A DNA stretch of 35,343 bases, from the NCBI GenBank assembly GCA_943355055.1, contig CALREA010000011.1:1-35343 (forward strand). The letters are read 5' to 3'. Source of the DNA: Candidatus Peribacteria bacterium. Its GTDB lineage: Bacteria; Patescibacteriota; Gracilibacteria; UBA1369; UBA12463. How positions within the stretch are numbered: the stretch's first letter is position 1; every line of letters begins with the position of its first letter. The notes beneath the pieces were generated by a model. The model saw nothing but the letters and a program-made list of their open reading frames with translations. It ran no database searches and was not told where the DNA came from. Position numbers and translations under genes: made by a program. Shown in pieces: positions 7,627 through 14,149 of the stretch.

Positions 7627-7692
7627 AGCTGGATTAGGCGCACATAATCTTCCATAAAACAAAAACTATACAATAAGTAAAGTCTATAGTAG

Positions 7693-7720
7693 AATAGTAC
7701 ACTAATTTTAAGGTACTATT
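7693..7720. promoter_or_regulatory. Perfect 8-bp inverted repeat upstream of the NHL/exosortase operon
   Basis: AATAGTAC (7693-7700), 12-nt loop, GTACTATT (7713-7720), 7 nt before the ATG at 7728. Confidence 0.6.
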
Positions 7721-7727
7721 ACATCAT

Positions 7728-9443
7728 ATGGACAAACATCATACATTCACGATCGATCAACTATCACCGTCAACACGCTCAAATTTCCAACCAAAACCGA
7801 TTTTTGTACGAGCTATCAACGCAATAAAAATCCGCACATCAGCAGGAATTCTGAGCCTCCTCGCGCTCACCGGATGCAACGATGAATCTATAGGAAATGT
7901 ACAAATCAATGCCGACACATCAATCACATCACCTGACGCGAGTATTCATAGAGAAGATATATTGGAAACCGTTGATGCCATTCAGCATAATGAAGTAAGA
8001 ACAAGAGAAAATGAAGATATTGGAATTATAGATGAAGTAAACATTCCCGATATAGCAACCGCGACAGACACGTCGATGAGTGAAGATGTATCGGAAACAT
8101 CGGAGATTGAGGAGAAAGATACTTTTATCGACAATACCGCAACCGACAGTAACGATAATGAAACTTGCACAAACGCCAATGAGGTAAAGATGAATCCAAA
8201 CGCCGTAAATGTAATCGGCCAATATGTAAACAGCGCCATATTGTACACAAGTGGATCTCCGAACAATGGAAGTGAAACTGCAAACACGATTGGCCTCTTC
8301 GCACCACATGCTATGACGGTAGACACGACAAATCACCGTTTATTTGTATCTGATACTTCAAATAATCGCATCCTCGTTTACAACCTAACGAACAGTAATA
8401 CCCAGGTAAGCGGCACTATAGCAGACTACACGGCAGACGCCGTACTAGGTCAGGCAAATTTCACGGCAAATGCACAAGGTACAACGAGTCAAACCTTAGC
8501 AGCACCGGAACAATTAGTATACGACAGTACAAACAATCTACTTTACGTAGCGGATTACGGAAACAAACGCGTTCTCATATATGATGTTGCCGCAATAACA
8601 GATGGGGAAGCCGCAGTAAAGGTATTAGGGCAAGCCAATTTCACCTCAAGCGAAATGGCAACGACAATAAGCGGATTCAGGGGTCCTCGTGGTTTAGCTT
8701 TAGACAGCAGCAATAATCGTTTGTTTGTAAGTGATGCCCAAGGTAATCATCGCGTGATGGTGTTCAATGTCGCAACAATTACAAACGGGGAGGATGCCGT
8801 AAACGTATTGGGACAAACAGATTTTACTTCAAGCACTACGGCTACATCACAAGGAAGACTGAGCAGTCCATACAGCTTAGCCTATGACAGTACCAATAGT
8901 CGTCTTTTTGTAAACGATGCCGGAAATTATCGAGTAATGGTATTTAATGTCGCATCGATCAGTGACGGAGAAAATGCTGTAAATGAACTGGGACAGACAA
9001 GCTTTACTGCTAATACTATGGCCGCAACTCAGAGTGGAATGTCATATGCATACGGAGTAGCCTATGATAGTACGAATGATCGTCTATTTGTTGGTGATAC
9101 ACCAAACAATCGCGTAGTAGTGTATGACACAGCCGCAATCACAGACGGCGAAGCAGCCGTAAATGTACTAGGGCAAACAACATTTACCGGACTCAGTGCC
9201 GCTACAACACAATCAGGATTAAGCGCTCCATATGGCATAGCTTATGAAAGCGGGAACGGATATGCGTATGTAAGTGATAGCGCAAACAATCGCGTCATGG
9301 TGTTTGATGCCGCCGTCAATCCGGGCTCCGGTACACCGGAATTCAGCACGGTAACATTACTTGGAACACTGCTCATAGGCATGTATGCCATGCACAAAAT
9401 GCGACTGGATTCTTCTATGGGGGGGGGCCGCGCGCTTCAATAG
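7728..9443 (+). CDS. NHL-repeat beta-propeller lipoprotein with C-terminal PEF-CTERM-like sorting signal
   Basis: Lipobox-like ILSLLALTGC; acidic linker; about six units of the form VLGQxxFT...PxGlAYDStNnRLFVsDxxNNRVmVFnvAxItdGEaAVN; C-terminus GSGTPEFSTVTLLGTLLIGMYAMHKMR (motif, hydrophobic helix, basic residues). Confidence 0.85.
   Translation: MDKHHTFTIDQLSPSTRSNFQPKPIFVRAINAIKIRTSAGILSLLALTGCNDESIGNVQINADTSITSPDASIHREDILETVDAIQHNEVRTRENEDIGIIDEVNIPDIATATDTSMSEDVSETSEIEEKDTFIDNTATDSNDNETCTNANEVKMNPNAVNVIGQYVNSAILYTSGSPNNGSETANTIGLFAPHAMTVDTTNHRLFVSDTSNNRILVYNLTNSNTQVSGTIADYTADAVLGQANFTANAQGTTSQTLAAPEQLVYDSTNNLLYVADYGNKRVLIYDVAAITDGEAAVKVLGQANFTSSEMATTISGFRGPRGLALDSSNNRLFVSDAQGNHRVMVFNVATITNGEDAVNVLGQTDFTSSTTATSQGRLSSPYSLAYDSTNSRLFVNDAGNYRVMVFNVASISDGENAVNELGQTSFTANTMAATQSGMSYAYGVAYDSTNDRLFVGDTPNNRVVVYDTAAITDGEAAVNVLGQTTFTGLSAATTQSGLSAPYGIAYESGNGYAYVSDSANNRVMVFDAAVNPGSGTPEFSTVTLLGTLLIGMYAMHKMRLDSSMGGGRALQ
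8211..9325 (+). repeat. About six tandem NHL-type propeller repeats (roughly 180 bp units) inside the CDS
   Basis: Recurring V/E-L-G-Q-x-x-F-T ... N-N-R-V-x-V-F/Y blocks spaced about 60 aa apart. Confidence 0.85.
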
Positions 9444-9465
9444 CGTAGAAATAAAAAAATAAAAA

Positions 9466-10413
9466 ATGGGACTCCTATCGAAAATTCCGAGGAACGCTTA
9501 CGGGTTCTGCATCCGCATGGTGCTGTTCCTAATTATATATAGCGTAAGTATATGGAAATATATTGACATCAATAACACGCTCTATGATGGGGGAGTTTTC
9601 GCAAACGTGCCATATATCGATTTTCTGATTTTTCCATGCGTCGGACTCTTTCTATTAGCCCGATGGAGCGAAATCAAAGAGATGGAGCGCTACCGAAACG
9701 GGATATTTCAAACGCTGATTTTTCTTTCACTCGCCGTCGGAGCCTACCTTGTACCGGCGTCATTTCTTGTTATGAATCAATATGTAAATAACATGCTGTT
9801 CAGCATCTACGTTCCACTATTGCTGAGCCAAATGTTTTTCCTCTTCGCAATATTCAATTTCCGATTTATAAAAAAATTCTCAAGAGACTTCGCACTATTC
9901 ACATCAATAATATTGATCATGCTCCTCGCTACATACACCATCGAACACTACTGGAAAGTGCTTTCCGGAAGCATTATGGGAGCATTGCACTATATACTAC
10001 CCCTCATAGACTCATCCGTGAAAATCGTAGTAAAATCCTATAGCATCACCATGAAGAATTTCAAGGTTAATATCGGCGCGACCTGCTCGGGAGTTTATTC
10101 GATCGTAGCTTTTTCCTTGCTATTTATTACGGCCCTCTATTTCGCATCCATCAAACACCGCATCAACAGATGGCTAGCGCTTATCGCATTATTAAGCGGG
10201 ATGGTAGCGGTATTCATACTCAACATCATTCGAATCGTCGTCATCATTCTGGTCGGGGCATACTACTCGCCGAAACTGGCGATACAATTTTTCCACGAAT
10301 ATCTCAGCGCGATGTTTCTCCTGGGATTATTCTTCCTTTATTTGAAATATATAATTCCCAAGATCGTTACGAAAGATCGAACACCATCTTCAACTGCTCA
10401 TTCATCTCTATAA
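9466..10413 (+). CDS. Exosortase/archaeosortase family transpeptidase-like membrane protein
   Basis: 315 aa, multi-TM; conserved Cys (GATCSGVYSIVAF), Arg (ILNIIRIVVII) and His (FFHEYLSAMF) in the expected order and in membrane segments. Confidence 0.85.
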   Translation: MGLLSKIPRNAYGFCIRMVLFLIIYSVSIWKYIDINNTLYDGGVFANVPYIDFLIFPCVGLFLLARWSEIKEMERYRNGIFQTLIFLSLAVGAYLVPASFLVMNQYVNNMLFSIYVPLLLSQMFFLFAIFNFRFIKKFSRDFALFTSIILIMLLATYTIEHYWKVLSGSIMGALHYILPLIDSSVKIVVKSYSITMKNFKVNIGATCSGVYSIVAFSLLFITALYFASIKHRINRWLALIALLSGMVAVFILNIIRIVVIILVGAYYSPKLAIQFFHEYLSAMFLLGLFFLYLKYIIPKIVTKDRTPSSTAHSSL

Positions 10414-11323
10414 CTTTTTCCCGTGCCGCCGCGGCAAAATCGTCAGCGCCGTATTTGTCCGATTTTTCATACGCAAAATTAATATCGCGAGATGAGTTGA
10501 CGATAGCGCCCATACCACCAGCATTGAAACACGGCAAAACGTCATCAATCGTGGCTCCCTGAGCGCCAAATCCAGGAACCAAGAAGATAGTGGTAGGCAT
10601 AATCGCGCGCAACTTTTTCGCCTGTTCAGGATAGGTCGCTCCCACCACCGCGCCGAGACAGGAATAACCCTCCTCACCAATATCATCAGCGCCCCAGGAT
10701 TCAGCGAAATGGCCGACAACGCCGAAAGCGGGTTCTGTTTCCGCTTGCGTTCCCGTCACGACCTTCAGATCCTGCAAATCCCCCGAACTCTTATTTGACG
10801 TTTTCACCAGCACAAATATCCCCTTCCCTGTATTTTTACAAACATCCATAAATGGCTTAATGCCATCCCATCCGAGGTAGGGAGTTACCGTAACGCTATC
10901 CGCGTCAAAGGCCGCGACCTTCTCTCCGAATATTTCTGTCGTGCCAAGAAACGCTTGTGCGTAAGCCTCAGCCGTCGATCCGATGTCATTACGCTTCGCA
11001 TCCGCAATCGTCAGAAGCCCTTTGGATTTCGCATATTTCAACGTATCCGCAAACGCCTGCACGCCTGCCGCCCCAAACATCTCATAAAAAGCAATCTGCG
11101 GTTTCACCACCGGGACCAGGTCGGAAATAGCATCAATTATCCCCATATTAAAGCGCAAAATCGCCTCTCCCGCAGCGGCAAAAACATCGTTCGGATACTT
11201 CGCTCGCGCCGCGGCGCGAATCGATTCCGGAATTTTATCAAACCTCGGATCCAGTCCGACACACACCACGCTCTTCTTCGCGCGAATAGACCGTATCAAT
11301 CTGTCTGAAAAATGTTCTGTCAT
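10367..11323 (-). CDS. pyrF: Orotidine 5'-phosphate decarboxylase (subfamily 2)
   Basis: CVGLDPRFDKIPES, FNMGIIDAI, KPQIAFYEMFGAAG, TIADAKRNDIGSTAEAYA, FLVPGFGAQGA. Confidence 0.93.
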   Translation of the reverse strand: MTEHFSDRLIRSIRAKKSVVCVGLDPRFDKIPESIRAAARAKYPNDVFAAAGEAILRFNMGIIDAISDLVPVVKPQIAFYEMFGAAGVQAFADTLKYAKSKGLLTIADAKRNDIGSTAEAYAQAFLGTTEIFGEKVAAFDADSVTVTPYLGWDGIKPFMDVCKNTGKGIFVLVKTSNKSSGDLQDLKVVTGTQAETEPAFGVVGHFAESWGADDIGEEGYSCLGAVVGATYPEQAKKLRAIMPTTIFLVPGFGAQGATIDDVLPCFNAGGMGAIVNSSRDINFAYEKSDKYGADDFAAAAREKVIEMNEQLKMVFDLS

Positions 11324-11366
11324 AGATTTTTTTTATAAAAAAAATTAAATCGCAAACGGGAACAAC

Positions 11367-12032
11367 TCACTCCTGCTTCGCATACGTGAGCCCCCACCCC
11401 TGCGGATCAGCCTTGTATTCCAAAATTTTATCAAACTGCTCCTGCGTAATCATCTCCTTCTCTTTCGCCACATCCAGGAGCGTATCGAAGTCAGTCAACG
11501 TGTGCAATGTAACCCCCTGTTCCTCAAACATCGCATACGTAGAAGGAAAACCATAGGTGAAAATCGCAATGACATCACTTGCCAAACTCTTGCCCTCCGC
11601 CCTCAGCACATCAATCGTCTTGAGTGAACTGCCACCGGTTGTGACCAAATCCTCGATAACAATCGTGTTGCTCGCCTCAGGCAACGTTCCCTCAATTTGC
11701 TTACCGGCACCGTGTTCTTTTGGCTTCGGGCGGACATATATCATCGGTGCCTCCAGCTGCATTGCCGCGAACGAAGCCCAAGGAATTCCAGCCGTTGCCG
11801 TACCGGCAAATACCGTATAAGGAACATTCCACTTTCGCTCCTCGCAAACCTGCGTGGCCAATTCGCACAACCCGTTGATAATTTCTTTTCGCACGTCAAC
11901 ATACGAAATCAACACACGATTATCCGTATAAATCGGCGCCTTCATTCCGGAAGTATAGGTAAAAGGAGGATCAAAACTAATCTTCACAGCCTTCACACTC
12001 AGGAGAATTTCAGCGATGCGACGTGAGTCCAT
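11367..12032 (-). CDS. pyrE: Orotate phosphoribosyltransferase
   Basis: FTYTSGMKAPIYTDNR and PRPP loop TIVIEDLVTTGGSSLKTI. Start set to MDSRR; the upstream extension in the track lacks family character. Confidence 0.9.
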   Translation of the reverse strand: MDSRRIAEILLSVKAVKISFDPPFTYTSGMKAPIYTDNRVLISYVDVRKEIINGLCELATQVCEERKWNVPYTVFAGTATAGIPWASFAAMQLEAPMIYVRPKPKEHGAGKQIEGTLPEASNTIVIEDLVTTGGSSLKTIDVLRAEGKSLASDVIAIFTYGFPSTYAMFEEQGVTLHTLTDFDTLLDVAKEKEMITQEQFDKILEYKADPQGWGLTYAKQE

Positions 12033-12239
12033 AAAATTGAAGTAAAAAAGTAGCGCTCGCGCAGGAGTATAAACCACGAGAAAGCGATGAGGAAAGCAAA
12101 AGATTGATCAGAAGAAGTACCAGTTTTTCCAGTGCCAAAAAATGGCTCGCAGAAGTCATAATAAACAAGAGTCTGTTGACTTAATCCGCTAATATTCTTT
12201 AAGCTAGTAATTTCCCGAAACTACATTTTATATGAGAAA

Positions 12240-12258
12240 AGGTACGGAAAACGTACCT
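12240..12258 (-). terminator. Perfect hairpin downstream of pyrK
   Basis: AGGTACG / CGTACCT with 5-nt loop; on the minus strand followed by TTTCTCATAT, so a weak terminator or regulatory hairpin between pyrK and pyrE. Confidence 0.45.
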
Positions 12259-12344
12259 GAACGTATATAAAACGCAGAAACGCGCATTGCGGTGTCCCCA
12301 AGTGGGCTGTGATTGGTTCGCTATCTATAAAACCCATTCTAAGC

Positions 12345-13190
12345 CTAATATGCATGTTTCCTACCAACAGAGTCGCGATGACTCACGCCGAAATCGCTAT
12401 TCTTCCGCGCCTTCGTATGATCCATCGCCGGACCTTCGGTGCAAACCGTGATACCCGTATCGTCCAAGCAGCAGTTACCGCACACTCCAAATCCGCACTT
12501 CATATAACGTTCTACGGAAACCTGACACGCTACTTTTTCTTTGAAGCATATATCACTCACGCGCTTCATCATGACTTCCGGACCCACGGCAAAGACGATC
12601 GTCTTTGTAAGTTTTTTCTTTCCGGCAGCGGTTTTTTTCATCTCGGAAATAATTTTTTCCAGAAGTGGAGTATTGTAACCCTTCATACCAACAGAACCGT
12701 CATCGGTAGCAATATGCAGTTTGACACCTTTTATTTTTTTCACACGATCCGTATAGAGAAGATGCTCTTTCGAACGTGCTCCTACAATGAAGTCGACGGT
12801 GCATTTTTTCGTCACAGCCTCCATGGCTAAATTATACAGCGGCGCGGCGCCATAACCACCGCCTACCGTAATCAGATGATCGCCAGGTTCATACTGAAAC
12901 GTTTTTCCAAAAGGGCCTCGTATACCCACACGATCCCCTACGTTCATCTCATGCAGCTTCTTCGTCATACCACCTACCGCAAAAATAGTGAGCCAGAACT
13001 CGCCTTTGCCGCTATCATAAGCGATAGACATCGGCTTCTCGTCAACACGTGGAATCCAAATATTCACAAACTGTCCGGGACGCGATTTCAAATCATAGGC
13101 AAATACAAACGTCTTCACGTGAGAAGTCTCACGGATAATTTTTTTAATCGGGAGTGTAATAGGGAAGGTATCGTGTTGTGTGACGTTCAT
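12345..13190 (-). CDS. pyrK: Dihydroorotate dehydrogenase electron transfer subunit
   Basis: FAD/NAD ferredoxin-reductase-like domain (RGPFGKTFQ, ITVGGGYGAAPLYNLA) and C-terminal 2Fe-2S motif CGFGVCGNCCLDDTGITVC. Confidence 0.9.
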   Translation of the reverse strand: MNVTQHDTFPITLPIKKIIRETSHVKTFVFAYDLKSRPGQFVNIWIPRVDEKPMSIAYDSGKGEFWLTIFAVGGMTKKLHEMNVGDRVGIRGPFGKTFQYEPGDHLITVGGGYGAAPLYNLAMEAVTKKCTVDFIVGARSKEHLLYTDRVKKIKGVKLHIATDDGSVGMKGYNTPLLEKIISEMKKTAAGKKKLTKTIVFAVGPEVMMKRVSDICFKEKVACQVSVERYMKCGFGVCGNCCLDDTGITVCTEGPAMDHTKARKNSDFGVSHRDSVGRKHAY

Positions 13191-13228
13191 AGTTTTTTCG
13201 AAGAAAAAATGATTGCTGTTTGATGATA

Positions 13229-14149
13229 TTACTCATGCATACTACCAATTACATCTTTTAGTTTTTTTACCTTGTTGATGCGGCACCACTCGTCCATCTC
13301 CTTGGTCATAAGGCCAAAAACCTCAACACCACGGTAGTAGACCGCAGTACCAACACCCACAAGTGTCGCACCCGCCATCATCATTTCGAGCGCATCGCGA
13401 CCATTATTGACACCGCCGGTTCCGATAATGGGCAATTTCGTCGCCTTGGAAATTTCATGGACGATACGAATAGCAAGAGGCTTGATGGCCGGGCCGGAAA
13501 TTCCACCCACCCGGTTCGCCAAGATCGGCTCCCTGGTCTCCAAATCAATCGCCAGGCCCGGCCCAACCGTATTGATACAACAAAACCCATCCGCGCCAGC
13601 TGCAGCCACACTACGGGCAATCTCCACAATACTGGTAACATTCGGCGACAACTTCACAATCACCGGCACGCGACCAACCCTCTTCTTCACCTCTCTACAC
13701 ACCTCCGCCGCGTCATCGCGCGAGCACGCAAACGGCTTCCCAAACTCATCTTCCACATTCGGACAGGAGATATTCACCTCGATAATATCCGGATGCAGCT
13801 TTGCAATTTCCTCAGCAATCTCACCATAATCAGACTTCTTACCCGCGATAATATTCGCGATAATCGGCGCTGTCTTCCTTTTATTATATTCAGCCATTTC
13901 TATTTTTGCCTTCTCGATACCCGCATCCGGCACACCAACCGCATTGAGCATATAATGCTCATTCGCAATCATCACCGGATTTGGATGACCCAGATGCTCC
14001 GTTAGCCAGAGTGACTTCGTCGTCACGCCTCCGGCCCCACTTTTTATCACATGATGAAAAGACGATGCGGTAATACCCAAAATTCCCGACGCCAGCACCA
14101 ACGGATTCCGGAACTCCACCCCGCAAAATGTTACCGAAAGATCAGTCAT
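13229..14149 (-). CDS. pyrD: Dihydroorotate dehydrogenase catalytic subunit (class 1B-like)
   Basis: FRNPLVLASGILG, EVNISCPNVEDEFGKPFA, VIVKLSPNV, INTVGPGLAID, IIGTGGVNNGRDALEMMMAGA; adjacent to pyrK. Confidence 0.93.
   Translation of the reverse strand: MTDLSVTFCGVEFRNPLVLASGILGITASSFHHVIKSGAGGVTTKSLWLTEHLGHPNPVMIANEHYMLNAVGVPDAGIEKAKIEMAEYNKRKTAPIIANIIAGKKSDYGEIAEEIAKLHPDIIEVNISCPNVEDEFGKPFACSRDDAAEVCREVKKRVGRVPVIVKLSPNVTSIVEIARSVAAAGADGFCCINTVGPGLAIDLETREPILANRVGGISGPAIKPLAIRIVHEISKATKLPIIGTGGVNNGRDALEMMMAGATLVGVGTAVYYRGVEVFGLMTKEMDEWCRINKVKKLKDVIGSMHE

What the first reader, a model, noticed from the sequence alone, without database searches (positions are those of the whole stretch)
7728..10413. 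Dedicated two-gene sorting system: NHL-propeller lipoprotein with PEF-CTERM-like tail plus its own exosortase/archaeosortase
Seen: the substrate gene ends in GSGTPEFSTVTLLGTLLIGMYAMHKMR (short motif, hydrophobic helix, basic residues). The next gene, 22 bp downstream, carries the exosortase Cys/Arg/His triad in GATCSGVYS, LNIIRIV and FFHEYLS. Known: PEP-CTERM/exosortase and PEF-CTERM/archaeosortase systems use this architecture, and PEF variants are best known from archaea. Inference: this is a one-substrate system in a bacterium, probably displaying a single six-bladed propeller at the surface.
Basis: partly seen in the sequence, partly recalled or inferred. Interest (0 to 1): 0.82.

Follow-up and report, generated by a model that had tools for sequence, protein, structure and literature searches.

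The report
One-client exosortase cassette in Peregrinibacteria
A tiny, uncultured bacterium carries a two-gene cassette made of one surface protein with a sorting tail and the membrane enzyme predicted to cut that tail, a protein-anchoring system known from Gram-negative bacteria and archaea and, as far as I could find, not described in this bacterial group.

Summary
ORF 9466-10413 passes the curated exosortase/archaeosortase models (TIGR04178, PF09721), and Cys207, Arg256 and His277 are invariant across 14 aligned relatives. ORF 7728-9443 is a six-bladed NHL propeller ending in PEF, a hydrophobic helix and basic residues. The genome belongs to Candidatus Peregrinibacteria (Patescibacteria/CPR), inferred from named same-order relatives. 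A tail profile built beside exosortases found further secreted proteins with the same C-terminal tail. Over 356 genomes of the class, strong tail hits occur in 14 of 23 exosortase-positive and 0 of 333 exosortase-negative genomes. The window's genome (96% complete) has one tail, 22 bp from its enzyme: a dedicated one-client system. Same-genus genomes show an empty site, so the pair is a cassette, probably gained. Three NHL homologues in exosortase-negative genomes end in S-layer-homology domains instead. The tails resemble archaeal PEF-CTERM (TIGR03024) but score below its cut-off, and the window's tail does not hit at all. The best reading is cleavage at PEF and re-attachment to the envelope; cleavage, acceptor and the propeller's role are inferred. 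Phosphatidylserine decarboxylase, part of the pathway haloarchaeal ArtA needs, is absent. The lipoprotein part of the claim stays open.

The parts
7728..9443 (+). Substrate gene: secreted NHL-repeat protein with C-terminal PEF tail (571 aa)
   Evidence: ORF; PF01436 NHL E=2e-27; six blades in the predicted structure, PDB fold matches to NHL propellers
7839..7877 (+). N-terminal hydrophobic segment ending in lipobox-like LTGC (residues 38-50); possible signal peptidase II site
   Evidence: sequence; LspA present in genome; lipobox absent from homologues
7878..8192 (+). Acidic linker of about 100 residues, predicted disordered, not present in homologues
   Evidence: alignment gap; pLDDT below 50 for residues 1-155
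8193..9322 (+). Six-bladed NHL beta-propeller (six repeats of about 60 aa)
9324..9410 (+). PEF-type sorting tail: PEF, hydrophobic helix, K/R
   Evidence: profile matches; the only match in this genome
9419..9427 (+). G9 tract in the last codons of the substrate gene
   Evidence: only G/C run of 8 or more in the window; slippage outcomes
9466..10413 (+). Exosortase/archaeosortase-family membrane enzyme (315 aa), Cys207/Arg256/His277
7627..10379 (.). Cassette absent from same-genus genomes G001 and G003 (empty site between the 132-aa ORF and pyrF); right junction near 10379, left junction only known to lie after the stop of the 132-aa ORF

Best explanation
A dedicated one-enzyme, one-client C-terminal sorting system. 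The NHL propeller is exported by a signal peptide and held at the membrane by its C-terminal helix. The neighbouring eight-helix exosortase uses Cys207, with Arg256 and His277, to attack near the PEF motif, removes the helix and transfers the protein to an acceptor in the envelope, so that the propeller is displayed at the cell surface, probably for adhesion or sensing. The pair moves as a cassette. Shown here: gene content, triad, tail conservation, co-occurrence, single client, empty site. Inferred: cleavage, thioester intermediate, acceptor, surface display, role of the propeller.
For: Enzyme above curated cut-offs and triad invariant over 14 relatives. Blind test: a tail profile from six seeds found tails in 6 of 10 further exosortase-positive genomes and 0 of 131 negative ones (Fisher p=2e-8). 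At class scale 14 of 23 versus 0 of 333 (p=2e-19); among genomes outside the first set 3 of 8 versus 0 of 202 (p=4e-5). The hits in exosortase-positive genomes are at the C-terminus of proteins that mostly have signal-peptide-like N-termini, while the two weak hits read in negative genomes fall mid-protein. Exactly one tail in this genome, adjacent to the enzyme. Empty site in G001 and G003. NHL homologues keep the tail in exosortase-positive G004 and G081 and carry SLH domains in exosortase-negative G054 and G090. The published definition of a dedicated system, one target usually encoded next door, fits (PMC3237569).
Against: No experiment. Genomes were not treated as phylogenetically independent in the tests. 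Nine of 23 exosortase-positive genomes lack a PEF-tail hit (four of these, G112, G129, G278 and G317, have an FSWW-type tail beside or near the enzyme; five are unexplained). G129 has an exosortase but its NHL giants end without a helix. The genome is 96% complete in 44 contigs, so a second client could be missed. A possible lipobox would give the client an N-terminal anchor as well.
Confidence: 0.75

Rival explanations
1. Cleave-and-release: the exosortase only cuts the tail and frees the propeller into the medium, with no covalent re-attachment.
For: No acceptor could be identified; phosphatidylserine decarboxylase, part of the pathway on which haloarchaeal ArtA depends, is missing from this genome and from 22 of 23 exosortase-positive genomes. 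PEP-CTERM proteins of Nostoc are detected in the exoproteome (PMC12188702).
Against: The same propellers carry SLH anchors in exosortase-negative relatives, which suggests that retention on the cell is selected. Other acceptors than phosphatidylethanolamine are possible.
Confidence: 0.25
2. The tail is a plain C-terminal membrane anchor and the neighbouring enzyme acts on something else.
For: A helix followed by positive residues is enough to anchor a protein (general knowledge; the tail here has both).
Against: Tail and enzyme co-occur over 356 genomes with no strong tail hit in any enzyme-negative genome; P and E are invariant and F nearly so in 27 tails from 11 genomes.
Confidence: 0.07
3. 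The protein is an N-terminal lipoprotein that is anchored at both ends or through its lipid, and the sorting tail is redundant or vestigial in this genome.
For: LTGC lipobox-like motif and LspA in the genome; about 100-residue linker between it and the propeller absent in homologues.
Against: The N-region before the hydrophobic stretch is unusually long; homologues use ordinary signal peptides; the tail still matches the profile at E=2e-11; the enzyme is intact and adjacent.
Confidence: 0.15

Closest known systems
Archaeal PEF-CTERM (TIGR03024)
   Same: Pro-Glu-Phe motif, hydrophobic helix, basic end; best curated match, 9 of 27 tails hit weakly
   Different: The tails scored individually were below the 23-bit cut-off (best 19.4) and the window's tail does not hit; consensus here is (V/I)PEFSTY; host is a bacterium
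PEP-CTERM/EpsH exosortase (TIGR02595/TIGR02602)
   Same: Enzyme superfamily, Cys/Arg/His triad, tripartite tail
   Different: EpsH model scores 26.4 against a cut-off of 105.6; motif is PEF, not PEP; described as limited to bacteria with an outer membrane and exopolysaccharide genes (PMC1569441)
Archaeosortase A/PGF-CTERM of Haloferax volcanii
   Same: Enzyme superfamily; tail of motif, helix, positive residues; anchoring of surface proteins
   Different: Motif PEF; the haloarchaeal system needs PssA/PssD homologues for lipid anchoring (PMC7157517), and Psd is absent here
Dedicated sorting systems (single target next to its enzyme; Haft and Varghese 2011)
   Same: One target in the genome, gene next door; protein families that swap anchors between relatives
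   Different: That paper's examples are mainly rhombosortase and sortase; the enzyme here is an exosortase
ScyF, cyanobacterial NHL PEP-CTERM protein (NF035926)
   Same: NHL propeller with an exosortase-type tail; best NCBIfam hit of the substrate (51.6 bits)
   Different: Far below the 350-bit cut-off; belongs to scytonemin synthesis, which was not looked for here

Membership tests
Exosortase/archaeosortase superfamily | Curated HMM above cut-off (TIGR04178, PF09721) | tested here: met
   43.4 vs 23 bits and 41.4 vs 25.7 bits
Exosortase/archaeosortase superfamily | Invariant Cys, Arg, His | tested here: met
   C207, R256, H277 invariant in 14 sequences
Exosortase/archaeosortase superfamily | About eight membrane helices | tested here: met
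   Predicted model, pLDDT 86.3, eight long helices; prediction only, and no solved structure of the fold was found
Exosortase/archaeosortase superfamily | Co-occurrence with a tripartite C-terminal tail | tested here: met
   14 of 23 enzyme-positive, 0 of 333 negative genomes
Exosortase/archaeosortase superfamily | Cleavage and transpeptidation | not testable with these tools
   needs experiment
EpsH-type exosortase (TIGR02602) | Score above the subfamily cut-off | tested here: not met
   26.4 vs 105.55 bits
Archaeal PEF-CTERM tail (TIGR03024) | Tail above curated cut-off | tested here: not met
   No hit for the window tail; other tails scored individually up to 19.4 vs 23 bits; best E among 27 tails 1.3e-4, bit score of that one not seen
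PEP-CTERM tail (TIGR02595, PF07589) | PEP motif, model above cut-off | tested here: not met
   Motif is PEF; no hit for the window tail
Dedicated sorting system | One target in the genome | tested here: met
   One tail at E<=1 with the seed profile and one at E<=0.05 with the larger profile in a 95.9% complete genome
Dedicated sorting system | Target adjacent to enzyme | tested here: met
   22 bp apart, same strand
Bacterial lipoprotein | Lipobox after a signal peptide, with LspA in the genome | tested here: inconclusive
   LTGC present, LspA present, but long N-region and homologues without a lipobox

The most novel reading that the evidence does not exclude
Scattered Patescibacteria use a PEF-type exosortase system of their own, spread as small cassettes, that covalently anchors secreted proteins to an envelope component other than phosphatidylethanolamine, as an exchangeable alternative to SLH anchoring of the same surface proteins.
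Probability: 0.5. Interest if true: 0.75.

Novelty: new variant of a known kind. Interest (0 to 1): 0.6.

Why it matters
How Patescibacteria attach proteins to their surface bears directly on how they hold on to host cells, and it is poorly known. The literature held here describes S-layer proteins and ordinary sortases in them, not exosortases. The window gives the smallest possible version of an exosortase system, one enzyme and one client side by side, which is a convenient unit to express and test. No solved exosortase structure was found in the PDB copy, so a compact 315-residue member with a confident model may also help there.

Tried and rejected
A genome-contig scan with the single enzyme found no relatives, and an alignment of all 14 was too diverse; five closer sequences worked and gave organism names. 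Phosphatidylethanolamine as acceptor, by analogy with ArtA, was tested through Psd and not supported. A PDB fold search of the enzyme gave nothing significant. Contamination of the window contig was considered and rejected: the P-type ATPase, rsmA and pyr genes on it match same-genus genomes G001 and G003 at 77-93% identity in the same order. Phase variation through the G9 tract was considered: slippage changes only the last residues after the tail and leaves the PEF helix intact, so an on/off switch is unlikely.

Full report
What is there. The window holds two same-strand ORFs, 7728-9443 (571 aa) and 9466-10413 (315 aa), 22 bp apart. The second passes the general exosortase/archaeosortase model TIGR04178 (43.4 bits, cut-off 23) and PF09721 (41.4, cut-off 25.7), but no narrower subfamily model (EpsH 26.4 vs 105.6; exosortase E 43 vs 150; XrtV 22.5 vs 313). 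In an alignment of 14 relatives Cys207, Arg256 and His277 are invariant. A model from that alignment is confident (pLDDT 86.3, pTM 0.85), with eight long helices and a short beta element before the catalytic Cys. No solved structure matches it by sequence or fold.

The substrate. Pfam finds NHL repeats (E=2e-27). The predicted structure shows six repeated blades, a disordered stretch up to residue 155 and a C-terminal helix at 541-561 just after P537-E538-F539. The fold search returns NHL propellers at E around 1e-17 to 1e-19. The N-terminus has a lipobox-like LTGC and the genome has LspA, but the homologues lack the lipobox, so 'lipoprotein' is open.

Whose genome. Named records of same-order relatives holding the enzyme are Candidatus Peregrinibacteria or Patescibacteria MAGs, so the window is assigned to that group by inference. 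Its contig belongs with its genus, because the genes around the pair match G001 and G003 in order at high identity.

The tail is a real signal. Six tails found beside exosortases align without gaps from PEF to a conserved lysine 18 residues on. A profile of them, run on 146 genomes, gave all hits at E<=1.5e-5 in exosortase-positive genomes (11 of 15) and none in the 131 negative ones. Leaving out the genomes that gave seeds this is 6 of 10 against 0 of 131, Fisher p=2e-8. Reading the hits, those in positive genomes, including the weak ones that were read, sit at the extreme C-terminus of proteins that mostly have a signal-peptide-like N-terminus; the two weak hits in negative genomes that were read fall mid-protein. 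With 27 tails the class-wide result is 14 of 23 positive against 0 of 333 negative genomes at E<=3e-4 (p=2e-19), and among genomes outside the first set 3 of 8 against 0 of 202. These p-values ignore relatedness between genomes.

One client. The window's genome, 95.9% complete, has a single tail, while other genomes have up to about seven. A sorting enzyme with one target, usually encoded next door, is what Haft and Varghese call a dedicated system (PMC3237569). The same genome has 34 SLH domain hits spread over more than ten ORFs, so the exosortase is a side route beside a large SLH-anchored set.

A cassette. In same-genus genomes G001 and G003 the order rsmA, 132-aa ORF, pyrF is kept, with about 28 bp where the window has 2.7 kb. 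Homology to pyrF resumes near window 10380, and the last codons of pyrF differ from the relatives, as expected of a junction there. G002 and G005-G007 have no match to either gene. G004, same genus, has an exosortase beside a dihydroorotase-like gene and an NHL-PEF protein on another contig. The window's enzyme does not group with that of G004 (some nodes are weak). Gain in this lineage is more likely than repeated loss, but that is inference.

Anchor exchange. Homologues of the propeller carry a PEF tail in exosortase-positive G004 and G081 (two proteins), and SLH domains in exosortase-negative G054 (two proteins) and G090. G063 and G067 run off the stretch and say nothing. G129, exosortase-positive, is an exception: its two giant NHL proteins end in FHFFGF/FHFFGW with no helix.

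Wider distribution. TIGR04178 is above cut-off in 17 of 381 Patescibacteria genomes drawn evenly. Outside this class, neighbours of the enzyme also end in P-E tails, such as IPEFSTYVYI (G689), (I/V)PE(F/Y)xxL in tandem (G401) and VVIPERL. In family f19 of the same class a second tail form, (V/A)PxFSWW, sits beside some of the enzymes.

Mechanism. By established knowledge of the superfamily, the Cys attacks near the motif, the helix is released and an acceptor resolves the intermediate. In Haloferax the anchoring depends on PssA and PssD homologues (PMC7157517). Psd (PF02666) is absent here and in 22 of 23 exosortase-positive genomes of the class, so that acceptor is not supported and the true one is unknown. 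That Patescibacteria lack an outer membrane is my own background knowledge and was not tested.

Known or new. The enzyme superfamily and the tail architecture are known. The tails are closest to archaeal PEF-CTERM (TIGR03024; 9 of 27 tails hit weakly, those scored individually below cut-off, the window's tail not at all). I found no paper in the held library that describes exosortases in Patescibacteria, but that library is open-licence only, and the 2012 archaeosortase paper was not held. I therefore file it as a new variant of a known kind.

Noticed in passing
window 9419-9427: G9 homopolymer in the last codons of the substrate gene, the only G/C run of 8 or more in the window; slippage would only alter residues after the tail (stop at 9443, 9448 or 9462).
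   Followed up: partly
L028 6871-7839; L029 9478-10884; L227 1392-4370; L156 419-1441: A second tail form, (V/A)PxFSWW followed by a helix and R/K, on proteins beside or near exosortases in family f19 of the class; no NCBIfam model matched the one tested.
   Followed up: partly
L228 5220-9576: In a Patescibacteria genome outside the class (G401), at least four small proteins with (I/V)PE(F/Y) tails lie around an exosortase gene.
   Followed up: no
L232 6369-7823: G689, another Patescibacteria class, has a protein near its exosortase ending IPEFSTYVYIATMCGGLIFLIKK, nearly the Peregrinibacteria consensus: possible transfer between classes.
   Followed up: no
L206 2664-3257; L211 1987-2541: Short (about 180-220 aa) exosortase-family enzymes in family f47 sit next to proteins ending VVIPERL or VVVPERL, helix, basic residues.
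   Followed up: no
L116 2346-8225 and 8327-14149: Two giant tandem NHL proteins in G129 share an abrupt C-terminus GGGDxFHFFG(F/W) with no helix, in an exosortase-positive genome.
   Followed up: partly
L018 9370-11520: Near the G049 exosortase, a 717-aa ORF ends in a Cys-containing stretch, helix and RRKR that resembles a MYXO-CTERM tail.
   Followed up: no
L123: A contig filed under a WOR-3 MAG encodes an exosortase fragment 66% identical to the Peregrinibacteria enzyme; likely a mis-binned contig.
   Followed up: no
window 10367-14149 and L022: In two genomes of the genus the exosortase sits next to a pyrimidine gene (pyrF in the window, a dihydroorotase-like gene in G004); probably coincidence.
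   Followed up: no
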